A stretch of 39,333 bases of DNA from Planctomycetaceae bacterium (GTDB lineage Bacteria; Planctomycetota; Planctomycetia; Planctomycetales; Planctomycetaceae): positions 1-39,333 of the forward strand of contig JADZEF010000016.1 of assembly GCA_020850695.1 (NCBI GenBank), in the 5' to 3' direction. The notes below the pieces were generated by a model. The model was not told where the DNA came from. It was given only the letters and a program-made list of their open reading frames with translations, and ran no database searches. A program made the position numbers and the translations under genes. Positions 1,381 to 24,338 of the stretch are shown piece after piece. Each line of letters starts with the position of its first letter. The stretch's first letter is position 1.

Positions 1381-3489
1381 CTATTTCTTAGGAGCGGCCG
1401 CCTTCAGCGGGCCAACGGCCAGCGGGTTCAAAAGGTAATTCGCCGCGGGCGAACCAAGATTGAGCCGGATGCCGCGGAAGGGGCCGTATCCGTCCGCCGG
1501 CAGAGCGACCGCTTTCGTCTGGCTGCCATCGGCCGTCATGCGGAAGATTCCCTCCTGTCGCTCGAGCCGCAGTCGAATCGGTTTGTTGTATTCGTAGGGG
1601 AAGTGGGCATCGTTCGTTCCGACCCGGAGCGTCATTTGGCCGGCCGTGGCCACCTTGACGGGGAGCGAAGGCCAGTCATCCTTGCCCAGCAGAGTCATCT
1701 CGATGATGGTGTGCGACTTGTAGATGACGTCCATTTCGACATAGAAGTCGCCGACGATTTCCATCGGATCCGAGATCACCTGCTGCTGACCATTCGGCCC
1801 GACAACTCCCACCGGCGTCCATCCTTTCGGAAGCTCTCCTCTCTTGAGAGCCCGAACGTTGGGAATAACCGGTTTCGTCTCGCCCACGACCTCGGTCAAC
1901 GTGAGCGGTCCCATTTTGAGCGACCGCACGAGAATCGATGACTGGACCGAGCCGAATTCGAGCTCGATTCCGTACAGCGTCGGCACTTCGTCCCCTCGCA
2001 GGACAATGGCGGTGCGGTCGTCCCCGTTGATTGAGAATCGAAGGTCCATCTCACGGCGTTCGATACGGCACCAGTAAGCATCCTTGAAGCCGTAATCCAC
2101 GATCTTCCGGTTGTCGCCCAGAGCCACCGCCAAGGACTGCCCGAAGGTCATCTTCAGTGTGGGACCCAACCGCCCATTCTCTTCGATGAGTTTGACCTCG
2201 AAGGTGTCCCTGTTGTGAGGGACCAGTTCGAACTCGATGAAATAGTCTCCCGGCAATTCGACCGGCGGCGACTTGAGCGTGTTCTGCACCGCCGAGCCGG
2301 CGGTCGGTGTGGCGGTGAGGGCCAGCGCCGGATACCCCTGCGAGAGATCGACGCCGACCAGCCCCTGCCCTTTCCAGGTCTTCGGAAGGTCCCCCGCGCG
2401 CACCTTGGAGATGTCGAGAGCCAGATAGGTTCCCTCGCCTTGATCGACCGGCCGGACCGCCGTGTTTGTCGGCGGCGCGTTTTTCGGAGCCGGCGTGTTG
2501 CCCGATGGCTTGTTGGGCATCGGACTGGACGAGACGGGTTTGCTCGTTGTCGTGCCGGCCGTCTTCATCGGCATCGGCTTGGTCGACGGCGTATCCGGAG
2601 CCGACTTGTCATAGGTCCGCAGCACCCATCGTCCAGACGAGGCACCGTGAAGCTCGGGGGTCTGAACGGCTTCGAGCGTGTTGCGGGCGAAGGCTTCGGT
2701 CTTCTTGCGGGTCTGATAGACCAGGTCGTCGAGCGTCAGTTCCTTGTCGGAATCGACGCCTTTCTTCCAGACGTCGAGGATGTGATAGAAGAAGACGCCG
2801 TGCTGAAGTTCGGGCCACTCGAAGCTTTGTTGACCAGCCGAGCAACTGAAGAAGGCCATGACGCTTTCCGGCACCGCCTGCTTCTGCGGGCGGGTGACGC
2901 TTTCGAGGTCGACCGTCTTGCGGCTGCGTGAAACGGTGGTCCGCGGATCGTTGCGGCAGGCGTCGACCAACAGCAGCTTCTTCTTGGCCGGGCACGCCTT
3001 CATGGCGTCGTAGACTTCCTTCAGCGGAATCAGTGTCTCCTTGTTCTCGAGGACCACGTCGAGCGGGCAGAAGTAGCTCGACGGGTCTCCCTTGAACTGC
3101 ACGCCGTGCCCGGCGAACGCGAGGATGATCGTGTCGTCCTCGTCGCGCCCCGAGAGGATCAGCGTGAGCTGCTTGCGGATCTTGGCGGCTTCGGGAAAGA
3201 GCCGGGCGGGGATCGTCCCGGCCGGATCGTCGTGCATCAGCGTGATATTCTCTTTCTTGAACCCGGACGCCAGCAGGACCTCGTTGAACTCGAGAATGTC
3301 ATTCCGCGAGTACGGGAGCTTGTGCAGTTGCTTGGCATCGTATTCGCCGACGGCCACGAGGAACGCGTAGTTCTCGCCGGCCAGTACGAGGTTCCGGGGA
3401 CTCGCGATTGCGAACACGATGACAGCGAAGATAGCGAAAAAGGAGATCAGGCGCCGAAGGCAGCCGATTGCCGAGGCGGATGGACGCAT
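1381..3489 (-). CDS. Caspase-family (peptidase C14) protein with two C-terminal beta domains
   Basis: A 702-residue predicted cysteine peptidase. An N-terminal hydrophobic helix (about residues 12-31) acts as signal peptide or anchor. The caspase p20-like domain (about 40-295) carries both catalytic residues: His128 in FAGHG and Cys178 in LLLVDACRND. A p10-like part follows (FFSCSAGQQSFE, then GVFFYHIL). Residues about 296-350 form a Pro/Thr/Ser linker. The rest is two tandem, related domains (about 358-530 and 544-696), each opening with LPKxW followed by a GDFYVEMDV-like strand, probably LamG/jelly-roll type sandwiches. The start has AGGA eight bases upstream. Bacterial C14 proteins cleave after basic residues and are linked to signalling or cell death in general; the substrate here is unknown. 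Transcribed opposite to the Tad genes. Confidence 0.85.
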   Translation of the reverse strand: MRPSASAIGCLRRLISFFAIFAVIVFAIASPRNLVLAGENYAFLVAVGEYDAKQLHKLPYSRNDILEFNEVLLASGFKKENITLMHDDPAGTIPARLFPEAAKIRKQLTLILSGRDEDDTIILAFAGHGVQFKGDPSSYFCPLDVVLENKETLIPLKEVYDAMKACPAKKKLLLVDACRNDPRTTVSRSRKTVDLESVTRPQKQAVPESVMAFFSCSAGQQSFEWPELQHGVFFYHILDVWKKGVDSDKELTLDDLVYQTRKKTEAFARNTLEAVQTPELHGASSGRWVLRTYDKSAPDTPSTKPMPMKTAGTTTSKPVSSSPMPNKPSGNTPAPKNAPPTNTAVRPVDQGEGTYLALDISKVRAGDLPKTWKGQGLVGVDLSQGYPALALTATPTAGSAVQNTLKSPPVELPGDYFIEFELVPHNRDTFEVKLIEENGRLGPTLKMTFGQSLAVALGDNRKIVDYGFKDAYWCRIERREMDLRFSINGDDRTAIVLRGDEVPTLYGIELEFGSVQSSILVRSLKMGPLTLTEVVGETKPVIPNVRALKRGELPKGWTPVGVVGPNGQQQVISDPMEIVGDFYVEMDVIYKSHTIIEMTLLGKDDWPSLPVKVATAGQMTLRVGTNDAHFPYEYNKPIRLRLERQEGIFRMTADGSQTKAVALPADGYGPFRGIRLNLGSPAANYLLNPLAVGPLKAAAPKK

Positions 3490-15213: not shown

Positions 15214-18021
15214 TCACTTCGCCAGCCGTACCTCGGGCCTGGCGGGCTTCGCATTGATCGCCTCGGACCCGGCCGCCGCGCTCGACCCCTTCGGCTCGAA
15301 CAGCACCGGCGACTGCCGCCCGCCCCCGTCCGCCGGCATCTGTTCCATCTTCACCTTGAGATGGTTGAACAGTTCCCCGGCCGTCAGATGCAGATCCCGG
15401 TCCGCATCGCCGTTCCCCGAAAACGCATCCGCCAGCGCCCGGGCGAATACGCCGTTGTCGCGATCCTGAGCCAGCAGCCCGCGCTGCCCCGCCGCACACC
15501 CCGCAATAATCACCGTCGACTTCGGCGGCGACTTCAGCGACTGCACCATCTCCTCATTCGACGGCTGCTTCTCCAGGTCGCGGCCCACCCCCTTGCGGCT
15601 CAGATCGAGCAGCAGAATCTTGTCCTGCGACGCACACGCATCCATCCGCGTCACCACCCACTCCAGCGGCACGCCCGTCTCGGCCAGCTTGTCGTAGTGC
15701 AGGTCCTTTCCCGCAATGTAAACCTGACCGTCATCCCCCTTGTAGGCATGCCCCGACAGGTAGACCACCATCTGCGACCCCGACCGCGCCCCGCCCAGAA
15801 ACCTCTCAATCTCACTCTGAATCGTCTTCCCCGTCTCGTCCTTCAGGAACTTGATGCGGTCCTCGCCCATCGCATACCGCCCGCGTAACGTGCGATACAG
15901 CAACTCCGCATCATCGATGGCTGTCGGAATCGTCGTGAGAAACTTGTCCTCGTAAACCTCGCCTCCGACCAGCACCGCCCAGCGATCGTTTCGCGGCCGG
16001 CGGATCGCATACACCGAGCTCGCCACGGGCACCTCGGTCGACTCGTCGTCGTAGGCGATCTCCACCACGTCGTAGAGCCGCAGGTCGGCCAGCGTCACTG
16101 CATCCTTGTCGAGAGTCACCTCGTTCGCCTTCTCGACCGTCGCATCGATCCGGAACGCGACTTCCTTCCCCGTCGACGTCGTCACCACCAGCTCGCGCGT
16201 CGCCGGCCGCGTCTCCTTCACGATCGCCGACATCTTCTTGGCATCGCGCGTCACCACGATCTGCCGGAATTCCGTGTCATACGCGACGCGAATGCGGTCA
16301 TCGCGAACCAGATCCTCCAGCGACAGCTTCGTATCGCCCCCCGTCTTCGCCTTCAACACGATCTCGCAATCGGCCGCGATCGGCAGCGACCGCGAATCGG
16401 CCACCGCCCCGGCGCCAAACCGAATCGTCAACCGCTTGCGGGGCGCATCCACGTCCCCCACAAAACCCACCGCCTCGGTCAGCCGCCGCACCGCCACCTC
16501 ATCTGCAAGCCGCACTCCCTGTCCCGAAAGATCCGGGAAGTGCTTCACCGCCACGGAATCCCCCTCGGCTACGTCGCGCAGCGGCTTGTCGGCTCCGTTG
16601 ATCTTGATGCCGGCCCGCTCGGGCACGCGGATCGGAACCTCCTCGCGAGTGTCCCCCTCCTCAACGCCAATCACGATCTGCCGCGTCTGCGCATTGATCG
16701 ACCGCACCCGCCCATAACTCGTGTCAGGATGCGACACCTTGAACTGCGCGACCGGCCCGCTGCTCCCATCGGCCGAAATCGGAATTTCCACGCGGTCCTT
16801 CGGTTCCACCTGCCGCAACAGAATGTTCTGCTTCTTGTTCAGCAGGAAAATCTTCGGCGTCCGCGCCACCTCGATCTCGCGCGGCGTCCCCGTCTCGTCG
16901 TCCTCGACGACGATCGTCCCCGCCTCCGCATTCACCTCACGGACCAGCCCATGGAACACCTTCGGCCCCGCCGCAACCCCAGGCTTGCCCCCGCCGCTCG
17001 GCAGGAACAGCAGCGCCAGGCTCATCAGCAGCGAACCGCCAAACGCGCACGCCGCAATGATCGTCCGCTTCCTGCTTGCCGCCGCCCCCTTCGACTCGCC
17101 CGCCTCTGACTCCTCGTCACCGCCCCCCTTCTGCACCACCTTGATGTCGATATTCAAATCCGACAGCGCATCGTCCGCATTCCTGTATCGTTTCGACTGA
17201 TCCTTCTCGACCAGCTTCTGAATGACGTGCCGCAAGTCGTCCGGAACTCCTTCCAGCACCCGCCCGATCTCCGGCAACCGACGGTCGCGGGCCGCATGCC
17301 ACATCATCCACGCGACCTGCTTGTTCCGGCCGAAGGCGCTCAACCCCGGAAACAGCGACTCGAAGTTCGGCCCGCACATCAGCTCATAGGCCGTAAACCC
17401 CAGCGAATATAGATCGCTCGCCGGCCCCACCTCGCCGAAGTCCTCCGATACCACCTCGGGAGCCATGTACTTCGTGGTCCCTTTCAGCAGGCTCCCCTCA
17501 TCGTCCGACACGCGCCGCGCGAGACCGAAATCGCCAAGCTTCACCCGCTTCCGGGCGTCAATCATGAGGTTGCCGGGCTTGATGTCCCCATGCACCACGC
17601 CACGCGAATGCAGATACTTCAGCGCCCGCAAACAGTGAGCCAGCGCCGTCCGCAGCGCCCGCAGGTCCATCTGCCGCCCTTCCATCCGCTCGGCCAGATT
17701 TCCCTGCATCAACTCGAGGATCAGCCAGCCCCGATCGCGATAAATATCAAAGATCGTGACGATGTTCGGATGCTGCAAAGACGCCAGCAGCTGAGCTTCC
17801 TGCCAGTATCGATCGAGGTGTTTCGGCTCGGCAAGGAACTGCTCGTGGATCTGCTTGACGGCGACTTCGCGGCCCAGTTCGCGATCGCGGGCGCGGAACA
17901 CCGTGGCGAAGCTGCCGGCGCCGATTTTTTCGAGTAGTTCGTAACGACTCTCCAGATCCACCGGTGGCCTCCCCGCTGATGCGACGTCGATCCGATCGAT
18001 TATGTCAGCGCGGTTGGCCAT
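15214..18021 (-). CDS. Transmembrane Ser/Thr kinase fused to a caspase-like domain lacking the catalytic Cys
   Basis: A 935-residue protein. The kinase domain (about 27-290) has the Gly loop IGAGSFATV, Lys56 in VAVK, HGDIKPGN (catalytic Asp146, Asn151), DFG (Asp164) and APE, so it should be active although HRD is HGD (a non-RD kinase). One TM helix covers about 320-340. Four related beta repeats of about 80 residues follow (about 354-430, 436-510, 517-593, 597-673). The C-terminus (about 680-912) is caspase-like: VVYLSGHAY keeps His758, but the catalytic position in KILLLDLSRKG is Ser808 rather than Cys; GCAAGQRG matches the p10-side block. The domain is therefore probably a non-proteolytic sensor or binding module. 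Start at 18021 is backed by AGGGAC upstream; an in-frame extension to 18123 is less likely. Confidence 0.88.
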   Translation of the reverse strand: MANRADIIDRIDVASAGRPPVDLESRYELLEKIGAGSFATVFRARDRELGREVAVKQIHEQFLAEPKHLDRYWQEAQLLASLQHPNIVTIFDIYRDRGWLILELMQGNLAERMEGRQMDLRALRTALAHCLRALKYLHSRGVVHGDIKPGNLMIDARKRVKLGDFGLARRVSDDEGSLLKGTTKYMAPEVVSEDFGEVGPASDLYSLGFTAYELMCGPNFESLFPGLSAFGRNKQVAWMMWHAARDRRLPEIGRVLEGVPDDLRHVIQKLVEKDQSKRYRNADDALSDLNIDIKVVQKGGGDEESEAGESKGAAASRKRTIIAACAFGGSLLMSLALLFLPSGGGKPGVAAGPKVFHGLVREVNAEAGTIVVEDDETGTPREIEVARTPKIFLLNKKQNILLRQVEPKDRVEIPISADGSSGPVAQFKVSHPDTSYGRVRSINAQTRQIVIGVEEGDTREEVPIRVPERAGIKINGADKPLRDVAEGDSVAVKHFPDLSGQGVRLADEVAVRRLTEAVGFVGDVDAPRKRLTIRFGAGAVADSRSLPIAADCEIVLKAKTGGDTKLSLEDLVRDDRIRVAYDTEFRQIVVTRDAKKMSAIVKETRPATRELVVTTSTGKEVAFRIDATVEKANEVTLDKDAVTLADLRLYDVVEIAYDDESTEVPVASSVYAIRRPRNDRWAVLVGGEVYEDKFLTTIPTAIDDAELLYRTLRGRYAMGEDRIKFLKDETGKTIQSEIERFLGGARSGSQMVVYLSGHAYKGDDGQVYIAGKDLHYDKLAETGVPLEWVVTRMDACASQDKILLLDLSRKGVGRDLEKQPSNEEMVQSLKSPPKSTVIIAGCAAGQRGLLAQDRDNGVFARALADAFSGNGDADRDLHLTAGELFNHLKVKMEQMPADGGGRQSPVLFEPKGSSAAAGSEAINAKPARPEVRLAK

Positions 18022-18230
18022 CCGAAAGTCCCTGATCATCAACCCGTTGCGGGAGCGGGGCGAGGCCGGAACAACCCGGCAATACATTCCCCCAAAGGTT
18101 GAACGAATTCCGCGCGCCGTCATCCACAGGACTTGAGAGTCGACTCAGGGATAGCATCGCTCGTCCGGTTGAGTGCGATTCCCCATTTCACTCGTCTCAA
18201 CGTCCGCGCCTATTGAGTTAGACCGGAAAC

Positions 18231-18309: not shown

Positions 18310-18684
18310 TCATCGAAGCTTCAGCAACTGCTTCAACTCATCAATGTCGTGAACCGCCGCCAATGAGATCACGTCCGGAGAAGCCTCTTCGGAGAAGGCA
18401 AAGACGTCCCGGCCGTACTCACGCTGGATCGACAGCGCAGCGGTCAGTCCGACGTCGTGATAAGCACCGACAGTCAGGCATCCCGAACCCCGCAGGAGCG
18501 TCACGGGAATCGGCCATGCGCTCCCCTCAGGTATCGGTAGGGAGTACGCAAGGACATTCTTCGCAGACTCTTGCTCGGGCCGCGGAACAGCTCCGGAGAG
18601 ACTTTCAATGGCTCGGCGAATCCGCGGAACGTCGAATCGTTCGCGCCCATCCGCGGACGCCATCAAGTAAATCCTCTGCATCAT
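18310..18684 (-). CDS. Small hypothetical protein
   Basis: A 124-residue protein of no recognised family. It has no signal peptide or membrane helix. The middle (SAWPIPVTLLRGSGCLTVGA) looks like a small beta region and the C-terminus (VHDIDELKQLLKLR) an amphipathic helix. The ATG at 18684 follows GAGG by eight bases; a second ATG is directly adjacent. Third codon positions are visibly less G/C-rich than in neighbouring genes (for example CTA, ATA, TCA and TTG codons), which may mean transfer or weak selection. It is divergent from the PadR module, whose promoter lies in the 139-bp gap. Coding status is supported by the ribosome site and frame length only. Confidence 0.5.
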   Translation of the reverse strand: MMQRIYLMASADGRERFDVPRIRRAIESLSGAVPRPEQESAKNVLAYSLPIPEGSAWPIPVTLLRGSGCLTVGAYHDVGLTAALSIQREYGRDVFAFSEEASPDVISLAAVHDIDELKQLLKLR

Positions 18685-18752
18685 GGCCACATCCTCATTT
18701 CGAGCCGCCGATATTATCACGTCTCTGATCAGATGAAATGGGGACCCGCCTC

Positions 18753-18780
18753 TTGACGCGCCGTCTCGAAATGATACTAT
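18753..18780 (+). promoter_or_regulatory. Sigma70-like promoter of the first PadR module
   Basis: TTGACG (18753-18758) and TACTAT (18775-18780) are separated by 16 bases, close to the consensus for a housekeeping sigma factor. It points at the PadR start at 18824, and the -10 box is inside the inverted repeat at 18774-18794. Confidence 0.6.
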
Positions 18781-18794
18781 GCCATACATAGTAT
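18774..18794. promoter_or_regulatory. Probable PadR operator
   Basis: ATACTATG (18774-18781) and CATAGTAT (18787-18794) form a perfect inverted repeat with a 5-base centre. It overlaps the -10 box and the likely transcription start of the PadR gene. PadR proteins are dimeric winged-helix repressors that commonly bind AT-rich inverted repeats in their own promoter; the AT-rich motif stands out against the GC-rich surroundings. Autoregulation is inferred. Confidence 0.6.
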
Positions 18795-18823
18795 GCATCA
18801 CAGCATCTGCGGGGAGGCGAGCC

Positions 18824-19189
18824 ATGCGAGTCGAACGGGAGCTCATGCGGGGGGCGGGGCCGGTCGCCGTCCTCAAGCTGCTGGAGTCGGGAGCGAAGTA
18901 CGGGTACGAACTCGTCGAGACGCTCGACCGGCAATCGCAGGGAGTCCTGGCCATGGGCCAGTCGACTCTCTACCCCATGCTCTACAACCTCGAATCGCAG
19001 GGCCTGATCAAAGCCGAATGGCGCGAGGCCGAGTCGGGCCGCGGGCGGAAGTATTACTCCCTCACCCGCCAGGGAAAGAAGCGTCTCGCCGACGACACCA
19101 AGCAATGGGAATCGGTCGTGCGGGCGCTGGCGTCCTTGGGCGTCGTCAGCGGCAACCCGCTGCCTCAAGTCGAAGGAGCCGGCGCATGA
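18824..19189 (+). CDS. PadR-family transcriptional regulator, copy 1
   Basis: A 121-residue winged-helix repressor. The PadR pattern is clear: YGYELVETLDRQSQG, then STLYPMLYNLESQGLIKAEW (recognition helix and following strand) and the wing with GRGRKYYSLTRQGKKRL. It is the short, single-domain PadR type that dimerises through a C-terminal helix. GGGGAGG lies just before the ATG at 18824. Its stop overlaps the start of the next gene by four bases (ATGA, 19186-19189), implying translational coupling. Protein sequence is identical to the second PadR at 21204, although the genes differ at 19 bases. Likely represses its own operon through the 18774-18794 repeat. Ligand is unknown. Confidence 0.93.
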   Translation: MRVERELMRGAGPVAVLKLLESGAKYGYELVETLDRQSQGVLAMGQSTLYPMLYNLESQGLIKAEWREAESGRGRKYYSLTRQGKKRLADDTKQWESVVRALASLGVVSGNPLPQVEGAGA

Positions 19190-21096
19190 GCGGCTCTGAA
19201 GCACTCTCGAATCCCGGCGATCGTCCCCTGTGGAAGCGCGTGCTCTCGACACCTCTGTTCGACCTGATTCGCGGAAGAGTCGGGGCCGATTCGACGGTCC
19301 GCGTCGCCGTGGCACGGGCCAATTTGCCGGCGGCCGTAGCTCAACTCATCGAAGACGTCGTCCGCCGGACGCGGCTCTGGCGCGGAGAGCGCACCGATGT
19401 CGCCCGCGAACTCATTACCCACTTTCAAGACGGAATCGAAGCCGGCGCCACCCCGGACGACCTGGTCCGACGGTTTGGCGATCCGCAGCAGGCCGCCGAA
19501 CTCATCCGCCGCGCCCGCATCCGCTGCCGCAACCGCGTCTGGCACGCCTGGCGATGGGCATTGCGAGGTGCCGCGGCCCTCTTCGCAGTCCTCTGTCTCG
19601 TTCATGTGGTGTTGACCGTCCGCTACCTGACCGGGAAGTCGGTCATCTCACGCGACTACGTCGCCGAGTGGAACGCCGAATCCGAAAAGATCGCCGAATC
19701 CGACCGCGCCTGGCCCCTCGTTCGAAAGGCCTTCCTCAGCTACCACAAGCCCGCCCCGCTCGCGAACCGCTGGAGCGACTCGTCGCTGGAACTTCCCGAC
19801 GATGATCCCGACTGGCCTCGACTGGTTGAGCACGTCCAAATAAACCAGCAGTCTCTCGCCCTCATGCGGCAGGCTTCCGCACTCCCCGGTCTCGGGCTCC
19901 GTTTCAACGACGCGCAGGACGACGAGTTCCGCACGCATTTCTACGGTCGAAAAGCACCCACCGCGGAATCGCCCGGGATGCTGCTCACAATGCCTGTGCC
20001 GCAACTGAACGCCATCTATCAAATGGTTTTGCTTGTCTGTGCCGACCTTCGGGTGTCACTTAAAGAGCACGACGCCCATGCCGTCCGACAGGACCTGAAG
20101 GCCCTCCTGGGAATCTGCAGGCGACCTGCGGAACCTCCCATTCTGGCCGCCGAGATGTATCAGAAGGCAACCTTCGAATTGGCACTGAAGGCCGCAAGCG
20201 ATGTGCTCGAAAAAAGTCCCCATCTCCTTTCCGAAGCGGATTGGATCGGGTTGGCGCACGAGATTGCGACCTATCACGGCGGCGGCACGCTTCGATTCCA
20301 CTCCCATGGTGAACAGGATTCTTTCGAAGACTTTCTGCAGAGAACGTTTACGGACGACGGACACGGCGATGGGCGGCTCACCCCCGAGGGCGCCGAGATC
20401 ATGGTCGATACATCCGAAGCCTTTTCCAGTCAGGTCGTCGCCATCATGCGGTCCCCGCCGTGGCTCTTCCAGGCGGCTTCGAAATACGCCGTCGGCCCTG
20501 CCGTCATGGCATTCACCGCAGGACGTCGCGAACAACGGGAGCTGGCAGCAAGATTAAGGGAACGTTCCGAATCGGAGAATACCGGTCCGTTCTATACATG
20601 GAAGGTCTCAGCATCCGAGAGCGAGTTGATGTCGCTGCATTCCAACTACGACCTCAGACTGCGGTACGCTCCAGTGGTCCTTTACTTCCCCGCCATGCAG
20701 TATCTGGCTTCTTATGGAGAACAGATCACGCAACTCCGGGACGGCGTGTTGACCGCCATCGCACTCGAACTCTACCACCGCTCCGAAGGGAAGTGGCCCG
20801 ACACACTCGACGCGCTGGTTCCCCGTTACCTGCCAAACTTGCCGTTGGACCGCTTCACGGGCAAGACGCTCTCCTACAAGCTTCGGAACGACAAGCCGCT
20901 GATCTACGCATGCGGCGGGGATGCCCAGGATGACGGAGGCCGCGCCTCGATGGAGAAACGCGCCGACCGCCGATACGGCGACACCATCGGCGGGTCGGCA
21001 AAGTCCCTGAAACCGGGCGAAGGTTATGACTGGGTGCTCTTCCCGCGTCTGCGCTTCCCGCCCGAGCCAATCGAACCGGAAGCAGTGCAGCCGTGA
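19186..21096 (+). CDS. PadR-coupled membrane protein, copy 1
   Basis: A 636-residue protein translated in overlap with PadR copy 1. Residues about 66-112 form a helical segment (RELITHFQDGIEAGATPDD, then RRFGDPQQAAELIRRAR) resembling the DUF1700/HAAS-type accessory region found in PadR-linked membrane proteins. One TM helix covers about 125-147. The remaining ~490 residues are predicted outside the cytoplasm, mostly helical, and end in a block with KWPDTLDALVPRYLPNLPLD and a DAQDDGG-like acidic loop, similar to the C-terminal metal-binding turn of type II secretion pseudopilins. No enzymatic motif was recognised. A PadR pair with a single-pass sensor-like partner suggests envelope sensing, which is inference. 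Confidence 0.85.
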   Translation: MSGSEALSNPGDRPLWKRVLSTPLFDLIRGRVGADSTVRVAVARANLPAAVAQLIEDVVRRTRLWRGERTDVARELITHFQDGIEAGATPDDLVRRFGDPQQAAELIRRARIRCRNRVWHAWRWALRGAAALFAVLCLVHVVLTVRYLTGKSVISRDYVAEWNAESEKIAESDRAWPLVRKAFLSYHKPAPLANRWSDSSLELPDDDPDWPRLVEHVQINQQSLALMRQASALPGLGLRFNDAQDDEFRTHFYGRKAPTAESPGMLLTMPVPQLNAIYQMVLLVCADLRVSLKEHDAHAVRQDLKALLGICRRPAEPPILAAEMYQKATFELALKAASDVLEKSPHLLSEADWIGLAHEIATYHGGGTLRFHSHGEQDSFEDFLQRTFTDDGHGDGRLTPEGAEIMVDTSEAFSSQVVAIMRSPPWLFQAASKYAVGPAVMAFTAGRREQRELAARLRERSESENTGPFYTWKVSASESELMSLHSNYDLRLRYAPVVLYFPAMQYLASYGEQITQLRDGVLTAIALELYHRSEGKWPDTLDALVPRYLPNLPLDRFTGKTLSYKLRNDKPLIYACGGDAQDDGGRASMEKRADRRYGDTIGGSAKSLKPGEGYDWVLFPRLRFPPEPIEPEAVQP

Positions 21097-21203
21097 TGGA
21101 CGGGTGGTGGAAGTGGGAGCGGGCGACAACTGTCTGAGGGATGATCCGGCAGAAGGTCGCAACACGACGCATTGCCAGCGTCACATTTGCAGGAGATCGA
21201 GCC
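21097..21203. other. Gap between the two PadR modules
   Basis: 107 bases. It contains a ribosome site (AGGAG just before the ATG at 21204) but no copy of the ATACTATG...CATAGTAT operator and no clear promoter, so the second module may be read through from the first. Confidence 0.5.
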
Positions 21204-21569
21204 ATGCGGGTTGAACGCGAGCTGATGCGGGGGGCGGGGCCGGTTGCCGTCCTCAAGCTGCTGGAGTCGGGAGCGAAGTACGGGTACGAGCTCGTCGAGA
21301 CGCTCGACCGGCAATCGCAGGGGGTGTTGGCCATGGGCCAGTCGACTCTCTATCCCATGCTCTACAACCTCGAATCGCAGGGTCTGATCAAGGCCGAATG
21401 GCGCGAGGCCGAATCGGGTCGCGGACGCAAGTATTACTCCCTCACCCGCCAGGGAAAGAAGCGTCTCGCCGACGACACAAAGCAATGGGAGTCAGTCGTG
21501 CGGGCGCTGGCGTCCTTGGGCGTCGTCAGCGGCAACCCGCTGCCTCAAGTCGAAGGAGCCGGCGCATGA
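21204..21569 (+). CDS. PadR-family transcriptional regulator, copy 2
   Basis: The 121-residue product is identical, residue for residue, to copy 1 at 18824, including the winged helix and wing. At the DNA level 19 of 366 positions differ and every change is synonymous; the last ~80 bases, running into the start of the next gene, are unchanged. AGGAG precedes the ATG. As in copy 1, stop and next start overlap as ATGA (21566-21569). Since the proteins are identical, the two regulators must share DNA target and ligand, yet no operator is seen in front of this copy. Confidence 0.93.
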   Translation: MRVERELMRGAGPVAVLKLLESGAKYGYELVETLDRQSQGVLAMGQSTLYPMLYNLESQGLIKAEWREAESGRGRKYYSLTRQGKKRLADDTKQWESVVRALASLGVVSGNPLPQVEGAGA

Positions 21570-23455
21570 GCGGCTCCGAATCTCTCCCTCAATCGAACGA
21601 CGCTCCCGTCTGGAAGCGCATCCTCAGTTCTCCGCTCTCCGACCTCCTCCGCGGCCGCGTCGGAGCAGCAACGTCCGTCGACTCCCTCATCGCAGCCGCG
21701 GGCCTGCCAGTATCCCTCGGCCAGCTGATCGCGCGGACCGTGAAAGCCACGCGGCTCTGGCACCGCGAACGGCTCGACGTGGCCCGCGAACTCATCTCCC
21801 ACTTCCACGAGGGTCTCGAAGCCGGCGCCACCCCCGACGACCTCGCCCGTCGCTTCGGAGACCCGCAACAAGCCGCCCCCCTCATCCGCCGCGCCCGCAT
21901 CCGCTGCCGCAGCCGCGCCTGGCACGCCTGGCGATGGTCGCTGCGAGCCGTGGGAGCGCTGTCAGTTCTGTTCCTCCTCTCCTACGGCCTGCTGATGGTG
22001 CGATATCTCAGCGGCCGGTCGGTCGTGTCACGCGACTACCTGGCCGAGTGGAACGCCGAGCTCAAGCAGGTTCCCGAGGAAGACCGCGCCTGGCCTTTCT
22101 ATCGTCAGGCCATTGTCCTATTTCAGAATCCGAAAGATTCAAAGCGGGAGTCGCGGTGGAACGTTCAGGACGTCGATCTCCCGGACGACGATCCCGATTG
22201 GCCAATCCTTGTCGAGCATGTGAAGTCCAATCAGAAGTCGATCGCCCTCACTCGGGAAGGGGCGGCCCGGCCGCGATTCGGATTCCGCTACAACGACCCG
22301 GGTGACGAGGCTTACCTGAAGCACCTCGGCCGCGATCGTCCAATTCCGGAATCGGACACTCCCCTGTGGGAGATCCTGCTTCCTCAATACCAGGACTCGC
22401 GCCGGCTGGCGCGGCTCTTGGGAGTGGGTTGCCGTCTCGCCCTCAAGCAAGGCGACGCGGACTCGGTTCGCCAGAACTTGCGGGCGCTGGTCCAACTGGC
22501 CCAGCACGTGACCGATAACCAGTTCCTCATCGCCGATCTCGTCTCGTACGCGATCTTCTCCACCGCCCTCAGTGCCGCCGGCGAGGTGCTTGAAAAACAG
22601 CCGGCGCTGCTGACCGAGAAAGACTGGATCGATCTTGCCCATCGACTCTCGAGTTACCATGGCGGCGGAACGATTCGATCGTCCCTGGAAGGCGAGCGAA
22701 ACATGTTCAGCGATCTGCTCCAGCGGGCCTTCACCGACGACGGACACGGGGACGGTCGATTGACGCACGCGGGATTTCAACTGATCGCCGCGCTCTCCGG
22801 CCCGTCGGACTCTCCGACGGGCAGTGTTCTGGATAACGCCTTCCAGACTCAACCAGGGTCGCGATTTGCCCTCGGTCCCGTCGCAATGACGATCGTCGCA
22901 GGACGACGCGAGCAACACGACCTGGCCATGGACCTGATCAATGAGTCCGAGCGGGAGCACGCAGGCCCCCTGTTCACATGGCCCGATTCGACCGAGGATG
23001 CGCGGATCAAGCAGCTCGTCGCACCGGTTCCGAATCGGCTCCGTTACGCCCCCATCGCTTTGTTTCTGCCAGCGACCGTGAACGTCGCCAGGGCTGGCGA
23101 ACGGCTCACTCAACGGCGGGACGGCCTGCTGACCGCGATCGCCGCCGAAGTCTTCCGTCGCGAACACGGAGACTGGCCGGAGTCACTGGAGAAGCTGGTC
23201 CCGCAGTATCTCCCCGCACTGCCTCTCGACCGCTTTACCGGCAAGTCGCTCACCTACAAACTTCGCGACGGCAAGCCGCTCGTCTATGCCTGGGGCATGG
23301 ACGGCCAGGACGACGACGGACGGCTATCCGGAGAGAGCCGACCCCACTTCTGGTCGGAGATCATGTCCAAACCGCAAAAGCCCTTGAAGCCGGGCGAAGG
23401 ACACGACTGGGTTCTCTTCCCGTCGCCGCGACAGCCGCCGGAGAAAATCGAATAG
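21566..23455 (+). CDS. PadR-coupled membrane protein, copy 2
   Basis: A 629-residue paralogue of the protein at 19186 with the same layout: conserved WKRILSSPLSDLLRGRVG start, helical HAAS/DUF1700-like segment (ARELISHFHEGLEAGATPDD, RRFGDPQQAAPLIRRAR), one TM helix (about 125-147), then a large extracytoplasmic region and the WPESLEKLVPQYLPALPLDR plus DGQDDDGR end. The N-terminal 150 residues and the C-terminal ~100 are well conserved between copies, and the motif YHGGGT...FTDDGHGDGRLT in the middle is nearly invariant, while other middle parts differ widely; overall about half the positions match by eye. This is the opposite of the perfectly conserved PadR partners. Function unknown. Confidence 0.85.
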   Translation: MSGSESLPQSNDAPVWKRILSSPLSDLLRGRVGAATSVDSLIAAAGLPVSLGQLIARTVKATRLWHRERLDVARELISHFHEGLEAGATPDDLARRFGDPQQAAPLIRRARIRCRSRAWHAWRWSLRAVGALSVLFLLSYGLLMVRYLSGRSVVSRDYLAEWNAELKQVPEEDRAWPFYRQAIVLFQNPKDSKRESRWNVQDVDLPDDDPDWPILVEHVKSNQKSIALTREGAARPRFGFRYNDPGDEAYLKHLGRDRPIPESDTPLWEILLPQYQDSRRLARLLGVGCRLALKQGDADSVRQNLRALVQLAQHVTDNQFLIADLVSYAIFSTALSAAGEVLEKQPALLTEKDWIDLAHRLSSYHGGGTIRSSLEGERNMFSDLLQRAFTDDGHGDGRLTHAGFQLIAALSGPSDSPTGSVLDNAFQTQPGSRFALGPVAMTIVAGRREQHDLAMDLINESEREHAGPLFTWPDSTEDARIKQLVAPVPNRLRYAPIALFLPATVNVARAGERLTQRRDGLLTAIAAEVFRREHGDWPESLEKLVPQYLPALPLDRFTGKSLTYKLRDGKPLVYAWGMDGQDDDGRLSGESRPHFWSEIMSKPQKPLKPGEGHDWVLFPSPRQPPEKIE

Positions 23456-23624
23456 AGAAGGGCGTCCGCCGAACGGTGTGGGAACCTGCGGCAGCACCCT
23501 GCCGCGGGGGCGACTGTCAGCCGCCACGAGTTTGCGTGCGAAACGTGTGGCGGTACGATCGGACGCATTCGGACTGCGTCCGGCGATCGACATTCCCATT
23601 GCACTCGCTCGTGGAACTCCACAC

Positions 23625-24338
23625 ATGGCCGCTCCCTCGCGAACACCACACCGCCATCTGGTCATCGCAACCATCGCTCTCGCCAGCCTGGCCGCCTCGA
23701 CTCTCGACGCCGACGACACCGCGCCCGACGAAAAGAACGGCCTCAAGCTTCTCTTCAGCGAAAACTTCGAAAAAGGGGCCGACCGCTGGGAACCGACCGA
23801 CCCCAAGGCCTGGAAGGTCGTTGAAAAAGACAACAACCACGTCTTCAGTCAGTTCGTCAAGAACAGCGCCTACAAGCCCCCGCACCGTTCCCCCTACAAC
23901 CGGGCGATGATCAAGGATCTCGTCGTCGGCAGCTTCGTCCTCGACGTCAAGCTGCAGTCGACCATCCCCGACTACGCCCACCGCGACCTCTGCCTCTTCT
24001 TCGGCTCGCAGGACCCCGCCCACCTCTACTACGTCCACCTCGGCAAGCGGATGGATCCCCACGCCAACAACGTCTTCATCGTCAACGCGGCCGACCGCAA
24101 AAGCATCTCGATCACCACGACCGAGGGGACGCCGTGGGACGACGACTGGCACCATGTCCGCCTCATCCGCGACGTGAAGTCGGGGAAAATCGAAGTCTAC
24201 TTCGACGACATGCAGAAGCCCGCGATGACGGCCGAAGACAAGACCTTCACCTGGGGCCGCGTTGGCATCGGCTCGTTCGACGACACCGGCAACTTCGACG
24301 ACGTGCGGGTGTGGGGGGAAAAGGTCGAGGCGAAGTGA
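23625..24338 (+). CDS. Secreted LamG/concanavalin-like beta-sandwich protein
   Basis: A 237-residue protein with a signal peptide (about residues 1-30, HLVIATIALASLAASTLDA) and one jelly-roll domain. Typical features are LLFSENFEKGADRWEPTD near the start, FGSQDPAHLYYVHLGKRMDP and the repeated strands ending in WGRVGIGSFDDTGNFDDVRVWG, as in LamG/DUF1080-like domains of planctomycete secreted proteins that bind or cleave sugars. No catalytic acid pair could be assigned. ATG at 23625 starts the signal peptide; an in-frame extension to 23478 lacks a leader. The gene follows PadR module 2 by 169 bp and may or may not be in the same transcript. Confidence 0.78.
   Translation: MAAPSRTPHRHLVIATIALASLAASTLDADDTAPDEKNGLKLLFSENFEKGADRWEPTDPKAWKVVEKDNNHVFSQFVKNSAYKPPHRSPYNRAMIKDLVVGSFVLDVKLQSTIPDYAHRDLCLFFGSQDPAHLYYVHLGKRMDPHANNVFIVNAADRKSISITTTEGTPWDDDWHHVRLIRDVKSGKIEVYFDDMQKPAMTAEDKTFTWGRVGIGSFDDTGNFDDVRVWGEKVEAK

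What the first reader, a model, noticed from the sequence alone, without database searches (positions are those of the whole stretch)
18824..23455. Tandem PadR + membrane-protein modules: identical regulators, diverged partners
The two PadR genes encode the same 121 residues but differ at 19 DNA positions, all synonymous. Their ATGA-overlapping partners, 636 and 629 residues, differ at about half of positions by eye. So the duplication is old enough to accumulate silent changes, yet the regulator has been held absolutely fixed, while the sensor-like partner has been free to change. One regulator read-out with two different extracytoplasmic inputs would explain this. Alternatively, gene conversion could be acting on the PadR gene: the last ~80 bases are unchanged.
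Basis: partly seen in the sequence, partly recalled or inferred. Interest (0 to 1): 0.8.

Follow-up and report, generated by a model that had tools for sequence, protein, structure and literature searches.

The report
Twin membrane sensors sharing one repressor
In a planctomycete bacterium two neighbouring copies of a gene pair encode exactly the same DNA-binding regulator but two half-different membrane proteins; the regulator copies have most likely been kept alike by gene conversion, so that one repressor would serve two predicted surface sensors.

Summary
In detail: padR1 and padR2 encode the same 121 residues with 19 silent differences, and their ATGA-overlapping partners share 323 of 627 aligned residues. 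It is a tandem copy of a known kind, the HAAS-PadR dyad. Trees of the outer and inner parts of the partners conflict: the sensors split before related lineages did, while PadR (and, in the nearest relatives, the HAAS segment) stayed alike across copies. Recent gene conversion of the cytoplasmic half is the best reading. Selection probably acts too: no replacements against 19 silent changes (P about 0.001 at the median orthologue rate, 0.055 at the slowest). New: a 21-bp palindrome on the -10 upstream of padR1 is conserved upstream of padR in relatives and occurs once in this genome (up to 3 mismatches); padR2 lacks it, so both modules are probably one self-repressed operon. The sensor's last domain has a predicted major-pseudopilin fold. 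PadR-HAAS contact, transcription and signal are untested.

The parts
18753..18780 (+). promoter-like site TTGACG-16-TACTAT upstream of padR1
   Evidence: consensus scan: the only promoter-like site in 18400-23800, but one site is no more than shuffles give (mean 0.7); its weight comes from the conserved palindrome that lies on its -10
18774..18794 (.). 21-bp palindrome ATACTATGCCATACATAGTAT, predicted PadR operator
   Evidence: 0 mismatches, single occurrence in the whole genome at up to 3 mismatches; same palindrome with 2 or fewer mismatches in 80 of 91 padR upstreams
18824..19189 (+). padR1, 121 aa, PadR family (PF03551)
19186..21096 (+). P1, 636 aa: HAAS segment, predicted membrane helix, outer domain
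   Evidence: ATGA overlap; HAAS E 2.3e-5, 25.1 bits, just below the 27-bit cut-off
21097..21203 (+). 107-bp gap without promoter-like, + strand terminator-like or operator-like site; padR2 probably depends on the padR1 promoter
21204..21569 (+). padR2, same protein as padR1, 19 silent differences; predicted conversion tract limited to this gene
21566..23455 (+). P2, 629 aa: HAAS helices about 49-113, predicted membrane helix 117-149, helical outer domain to about 500, pseudopilin-like domain about 504-627
   Evidence: HAAS 27.2 bits, cut-off 27; AlphaFold2 model pLDDT 87.5; terminal domain alone

Best explanation
Two copies of a PadR-HAAS regulator and membrane-protein pair lie head to tail behind a single palindromic site, and their regulator genes, identical in protein and differing at 20% of silent sites against 66% in their partners, have most likely been equalised by recent gene conversion, so that one repressor pool would answer to two diverged predicted envelope sensors. 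Shown: the single palindrome on the -10 hexamer, its conservation upstream of padR in relatives, its absence upstream of padR2, the low silent divergence of padR, and the conflict between HAAS and sensor trees among the nearest relatives. Inferred: the four genes are one transcript; PadR dimers bind the palindrome and repress it; each partner's cytoplasmic HAAS segment binds PadR and holds or releases it according to a signal seen by the outer domain; the ATGA overlap and the AAGGAG ribosome-binding site inside the end of padR match the amounts of PadR and partner. With no other strong operator seen, the main output would be the amount of the two membrane proteins themselves, a self-limiting loop. 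Recombination can still reach padR, which stays alike, but rarely the sensors, which have drifted apart; a shared operator would favour repressors that stay interchangeable.
For: padR pS 0.204 is the lowest, PadR identity 1.00 the highest and the padR/partner pS ratio 0.311 the lowest of 3081 pairs (median ratio 0.95). The 37 other pairs with partner identity 0.45-0.60 have PadR identity 0.65-0.93. Likeness stops abruptly at both ends of padR. Sensor tree: P1 with P0002 (100/98), P2 with P0004 (89/75), P0002 with P0004 rejected (AU p 0.0035); HAAS tree: P0002 with P0004 (99/92), P0002 with P1 rejected (p 0.0077). Window PadRs are identical while P0121 and P0122 share K100, G109, I116. Mosaic PadRs P0123 and P0124. 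Palindrome. Known dyad and its proposed mechanism: PMC11237479 (passages). Self-repressed PadR/DUF1700 operon in Listeria: PMC6624303 (passages and section 8).
Against: No DNA of the nearest relatives was available, so the PadR to partner pairing there rests on equal contig lengths and sources, and the PadR branches concerned are unresolved. The sensor tree does not reject P2+P0002+P0004 (p 0.078), and the HAAS tree does not reject P2+P0003+P0004 (p 0.062) or P1+P0001+P2+P0003 (p 0.059). L156, with two partners around one padR, shows no HAAS-over-sensor contrast. A promoter-like site is no more than chance by itself.
Confidence: 0.7

Rival explanations
1. padR2 is not an old copy that was converted but a later insertion of a padR copy in front of P2, in an operon that had been operator-padR-P1-P2.
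For: L139 has one operator, one padR and two partners in tandem, so such an ancestor is plausible; it would give the same low silent divergence.
Confidence: 0.17
2. Selection alone holds PadR; the duplication is as recent or as old as padR's silent changes say and no conversion occurred.
For: No replacements against 19 silent changes; at the median omega of 10 hand-picked close orthologue pairs 6.7 would be expected (P 0.0012; 0.055 with the slowest pair).
Against: Partner pS 0.66 against padR 0.20; padR silent sites are free in relatives (window against L063: PadR pS 0.58-0.63); the variable PadR tail is identical at DNA level.
Confidence: 0.05
3. A recent whole-module duplication, after which one partner was replaced by recombination with a diverged relative.
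For: Short tracts do recombine here: P2 and the close strain's P0003 differ at 8 of 125 inner residues and 2 of 504 outer ones (Fisher p 6e-5); the HAAS and sensor trees conflict.
Against: P1 and P2 stay within one clade of six close proteins in both trees, and their HAAS part is diverged too (pS 0.51), so nearly the whole partner would have to be replaced right up to the padR stop; GC3 gives no sign of foreign origin.
Confidence: 0.08

Closest known systems
HAAS-PadR dyad (Ravi et al. 2024, PMC11237479; passages read)
   Same: standalone PadR gene beside a gene with a HAAS domain fused to a membrane-linked sensor; three-helix HAAS with a GxP-like motif
   Different: two modules in tandem with identical PadRs and one operator; a sensor with a long helical outer domain ending in a pseudopilin-like domain, an architecture not mentioned in the passages I saw
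Listeria LltR-Lmo0600-Lmo0601 operon (Hauf et al. 2019, PMC6624303; passages and section 8)
   Same: PadR repressor followed by a DUF1700 membrane protein; the repressor represses its own operon (150.6-, 118.0- and 106.8-fold in the mutant), and in the table rows I saw other induced genes rose 12.7-fold or less
   Different: single PadR, multi-span partner, a Gram-positive; no twin module
NCBIfam TIGR03433 padR_acidobact
   Same: same PadR type: E 6.4e-27, 93.6 bits over residues 10-104
   Different: below that family's cut-off of 101.8 bits
Type II secretion major pseudopilin (GspG/EpsG)
   Different: Foldseek E only 0.016; the domain ends a membrane sensor and its helix is internal, not at the mature N-terminus

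Membership tests
HAAS-PadR dyad | standalone PadR-like winged-helix protein | tested here: met
   PF03551 78.3 bits, cut-off 27, 121-aa protein with no other domain above cut-off
HAAS-PadR dyad | neighbouring gene with a HAAS domain | tested here: met
   PF22564: P2 27.2 bits (cut-off 27), P1 25.1 bits (below it); 47 of 51 aligned partners match at E up to 0.1
HAAS-PadR dyad | alpha-helical core with a conserved GxP motif | tested here: met
   helices 49-62, 66-85, 90-97, 100-113 in the model; G98 in 51 of 51 and P100 in 31 of 51 aligned partners
HAAS-PadR dyad | HAAS joined to a membrane-linked sensor | tested here: met
   33-residue helix 117-149 after an arginine-rich stretch, then a long outer domain; the membrane span is my reading of the sequence, no membrane predictor was run
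HAAS-PadR dyad | HAAS binds PadR and changes its activity | not testable with these tools
   no complex prediction or experiment available
TIGR03433 padR_acidobact | score at or above the family cut-off | tested here: not met
   93.6 bits against 101.8
Type II secretion major pseudopilin | major-pseudopilin fold | tested here: met
Type II secretion major pseudopilin | N-terminal prepilin leader and hydrophobic helix at the mature N-terminus | tested here: not met
   the matching helix is internal (504-534) in a protein that begins with the HAAS segment; the leader rule itself is recalled

The most novel reading that the evidence does not exclude
The operon is a receptor-diversifying cassette: PadR plus the cytoplasmic HAAS segment is a constant region renewed by gene conversion up to the membrane helix, and the outer sensor is a variable region free to change or be swapped, so that paralogous sensors keep feeding one repressor and one promoter. 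The same pattern would recur in the nearest relatives (P0002/P0004: 94% inside, 51% outside), between strains (8 changes in the inner 125 residues of P2 against 2 in the outer 504), in mosaic PadRs (P0123, P0124) and independently in the L139 clade.
Probability: 0.25. Interest if true: 0.75.

Novelty: new variant of a known kind. Interest (0 to 1): 0.55.

Why it matters
HAAS-PadR pairs have been proposed as an alternative to two-component systems, but the contact between the two proteins and the way such pairs multiply without harmful crosstalk are open. Here two sensors seem to be left crossed onto one repressor. The locus offers a defined operator, a short interface (PadR plus about 115 residues) and natural sensor variants, which makes the proposed contact directly testable, and it would be a clear bacterial case of domain-resolved concerted evolution inside a signalling operon.

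Tried and rejected
Testing 'multi-copy PadRs are always identical' failed for want of cases: only this genome has two close PadRs among 27 positive of 170 family genomes and 20 positive of 392 phylum genomes (overlapping sets; E up to 1e-25). None of 80 genome-contig loci (the best 80 of 182) has a second PadR at E up to 1e-4 within the held stretch; a partner match is present in 78 of the 80.

L139 as a second proof of conversion: its two sensors are rejected as sisters (p 0.0012) but its HAAS grouping is unresolved (sisterhood not rejected, p 0.13), so it is only suggestive; its HAAS silent divergence is lower than the rest (pS 0.44 against 0.64) but orthologue controls vary. L156 shows no contrast (0.56 against 0.51), a result against generality. 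Clustering of strain differences in P1/P0001 is not significant (p 0.09). GC3 gives no sign of foreign origin.

Paper searches (listings only) for PadR with HAAS, gene conversion, planctomycetes, DUF1700 and for concerted evolution of tandem regulators: no row listed describes this arrangement, but the lists are partial (12 of 64, 15 of 385, 10 of 595; the others were listed whole: 2, 3 and 6).

Rows dropped before counts: in the set, padR copies identical to one already held were left out, and 12 of 91 padR loci had no partner ORF over 1400 nt and are not in the 3081 pairs. The 10 orthologue pairs behind the omega figure were picked by hand from the close pairs.

Full report
WHAT IS THERE. 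The window is a whole contig (C16, 39,333 bp) of an 8.6-Mb, 440-contig genome. Relatives found by PadR are titled Planctomycetota, Planctomycetaceae, Gimesia, Phycisphaerales and a few Gemmatimonadota; a family genome contig (G086:C215) has the same length, 14,837, as JAQCEJ010000124.1, titled Planctomycetota. padR1 (18824-19189) and padR2 (21204-21569) encode the same 121 residues with 19 silent differences; each overlaps its partner by ATGA: P1 (636 aa) and P2 (629 aa), 323 identical of 627 aligned residues. PadR is PF03551; the partners carry HAAS (PF22564; P2 just above and P1 just below the cut-off; 47 of 51 aligned partners match at E up to 0.1). This is the HAAS-PadR dyad of Ravi et al. 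2024 (PMC11237479, passages).

ONE OPERATOR. A 21-bp palindrome, ATACTATG-N5-CATAGTAT, lies at 18774-18794 on the -10 hexamer of the only promoter-like site in 18400-23800 (one such site is no more than shuffles give). In the whole genome it occurs once at up to 3 mismatches; the reversed control pattern occurs twice. In 91 padR upstreams it is present with 2 or fewer mismatches in 80 and 4 or fewer in 89; the two exceptions are padR2 and L172. Reversed controls reach 2 or fewer in 0 of 91 and 4 or fewer in 10 of 91; shuffles reach 2 or fewer in 0 of 4550 and 4 or fewer in 19. Of 27 family genomes with this PadR, 26 have a match at up to 3 mismatches; in the part of that output that was listed (10 genomes besides this one, the last cut) every match with at most one mismatch lies upstream of padR, while at 3 mismatches the genomes with many matches have about as many in the control. 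An ORF that overlaps padR by 4 bases follows it in 22 of 26 family loci, short in two of them (L075, L079). So padR2 and P2 most likely depend on the padR1 promoter; no terminator-like site was found on the + strand.

WHY CONVERSION AND NOT SELECTION ALONE. Silent divergence (NG86) is pS 0.204 (dS 0.24) in padR and 0.66 (dS 1.55) in the partners, 0.51 in their first 125 codons and 0.69 after. At fourfold sites of identical residues 8 of 43 differ in padR and 67 of 110 in the partners. Among 79 padR+partner sets (77 loci plus the two window modules, 3081 pairs) the window pair has the lowest padR pS, the highest PadR identity and the lowest padR/partner ratio (0.311; next 0.351; median 0.95). 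The 37 other pairs with partner identity 0.45-0.60 have PadR identity 0.65-0.93. The likeness ends abruptly at both ends of padR: 6 shared bases before the start, and about 26 of 40 bases just after the end. The last 75 bases of padR plus 7 more are identical, although in each of the nine close orthologue pairs examined the PadR tail is less conserved in protein than the rest.

TREES. The nearest relatives in the protein search are P0002 (635 aa) and P0004 (637 aa); P0001 and P0003 are near-identical versions of P1 and P2 (99% outside the HAAS part), by my reading from another strain. P0002 and P0004 are 94% identical in residues 1-125 and 51% after, the second largest excess of HAAS over sensor likeness in 32,107 pairs; the largest, and many near the top, involve L139. 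The sensor tree groups P1 with P0002 (100/98) and P2 with P0004 (89/75) and rejects P0002 with P0004 (AU p 0.0035). The HAAS tree groups P0002 with P0004 (99/92) next to P2 (100/98) and rejects P0002 with P1 (p 0.0077). Not rejected: P2+P0002+P0004 in the sensor tree (0.078), P2+P0004 and P1+P2 of the window in the HAAS tree (0.062, 0.059). So the sensor types split before these lineages did, and the cytoplasmic part was later equalised across types. PadR fits: the window copies are identical, while P0121 and P0122 share K100, G109 and I116. I pair these with P0002 and P0004 because contig lengths (7,989; 23,124) and sources agree; that is inference, and the PadR branches concerned are unresolved. 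P0123 and P0124 are mosaic: 80 of 82 residues identical to the window PadR in 40-121 but 25 and 23 of 39 before; the next of 120 scored PadRs is far behind.

SELECTION TOO. With 19 silent changes since equalisation, the median omega of 10 orthologue pairs (0.104) predicts 6.7 replacements; none is seen (P 0.0012; 0.055 with the slowest pair). Conversion equalises; selection seems to keep the equalised protein unchanged.

GENERALITY. L139 (titled Phycisphaeraceae) has one operator, one padR and two partners in tandem, 86% alike in HAAS and 43% in the sensor; its sensors are not sisters (p 0.0012) while its HAAS grouping is unresolved. L156 has two partners around one padR and no such contrast. 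The pattern is recurrent at most, not universal.

MECHANISM. Shown: arrangement, palindrome, divergence pattern. Inferred: PadR represses its own promoter at the palindrome; the HAAS segments bind PadR and relay signals from outside; both sensors act on one promoter whose product is mainly themselves. In Listeria the PadR-type LltR represses its own operon, which holds a DUF1700 membrane protein, more than 100-fold; the other induced genes in the rows I saw rose 12.7-fold or less, and excess of the membrane protein Lmo0600 caused the mutant's cold-growth defect (PMC6624303, passages and section 8).

VERDICT. A real and unusual tandem of a known kind. The regulator's identity is best explained by gene conversion plus purifying selection, and the one-repressor, two-sensor operon is the likely working form.

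Noticed in passing
L066-L070, L072, L073, L075, L077, L079 (family loci, mostly genus g10): Partners of about 735-746 aa in several of these loci show two HAAS-like stretches behind one padR, a possible within-protein version of two HAAS per regulator.
   Followed up: no
L075 and L079 downstream of padR: The ORF overlapping padR is short (198 and 81 aa) and the rest of the partner continues in another ORF; broken partner genes or sequence errors.
   Followed up: no
L148:2162-5311: Two further ORFs resembling the sensor part without the HAAS part lie upstream of the padR operator.
   Followed up: no
window P2 residues about 490-595 (23033-23350): The last domain alone matches many other open frames across the family's genomes, so this pseudopilin-like domain is probably widespread in otherwise unrelated planctomycete proteins.
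   Followed up: partly
window 15214-18123 (-) and 1381-3489 (-): A protein kinase joined to a caspase-like domain, and a second caspase-like protein, on the same contig.
   Followed up: no
window P2 residues 24-69, against P0003: Most differences between the window's P2 and its close relative fall in the inner part: 8 of 125 against 2 of 504, a sign of a short recent recombination tract.
   Followed up: partly
G000:C217:1935-2225 (-): A third, distant PadR (37% identical) elsewhere in the genome; my one family scan at its locus used a wrong strand or frame and gave nothing.
   Followed up: no
window 23478-24338 (+): ORF after P2 with a weak laminin-G-like match below the cut-off; probably a separate secreted protein.
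   Followed up: no
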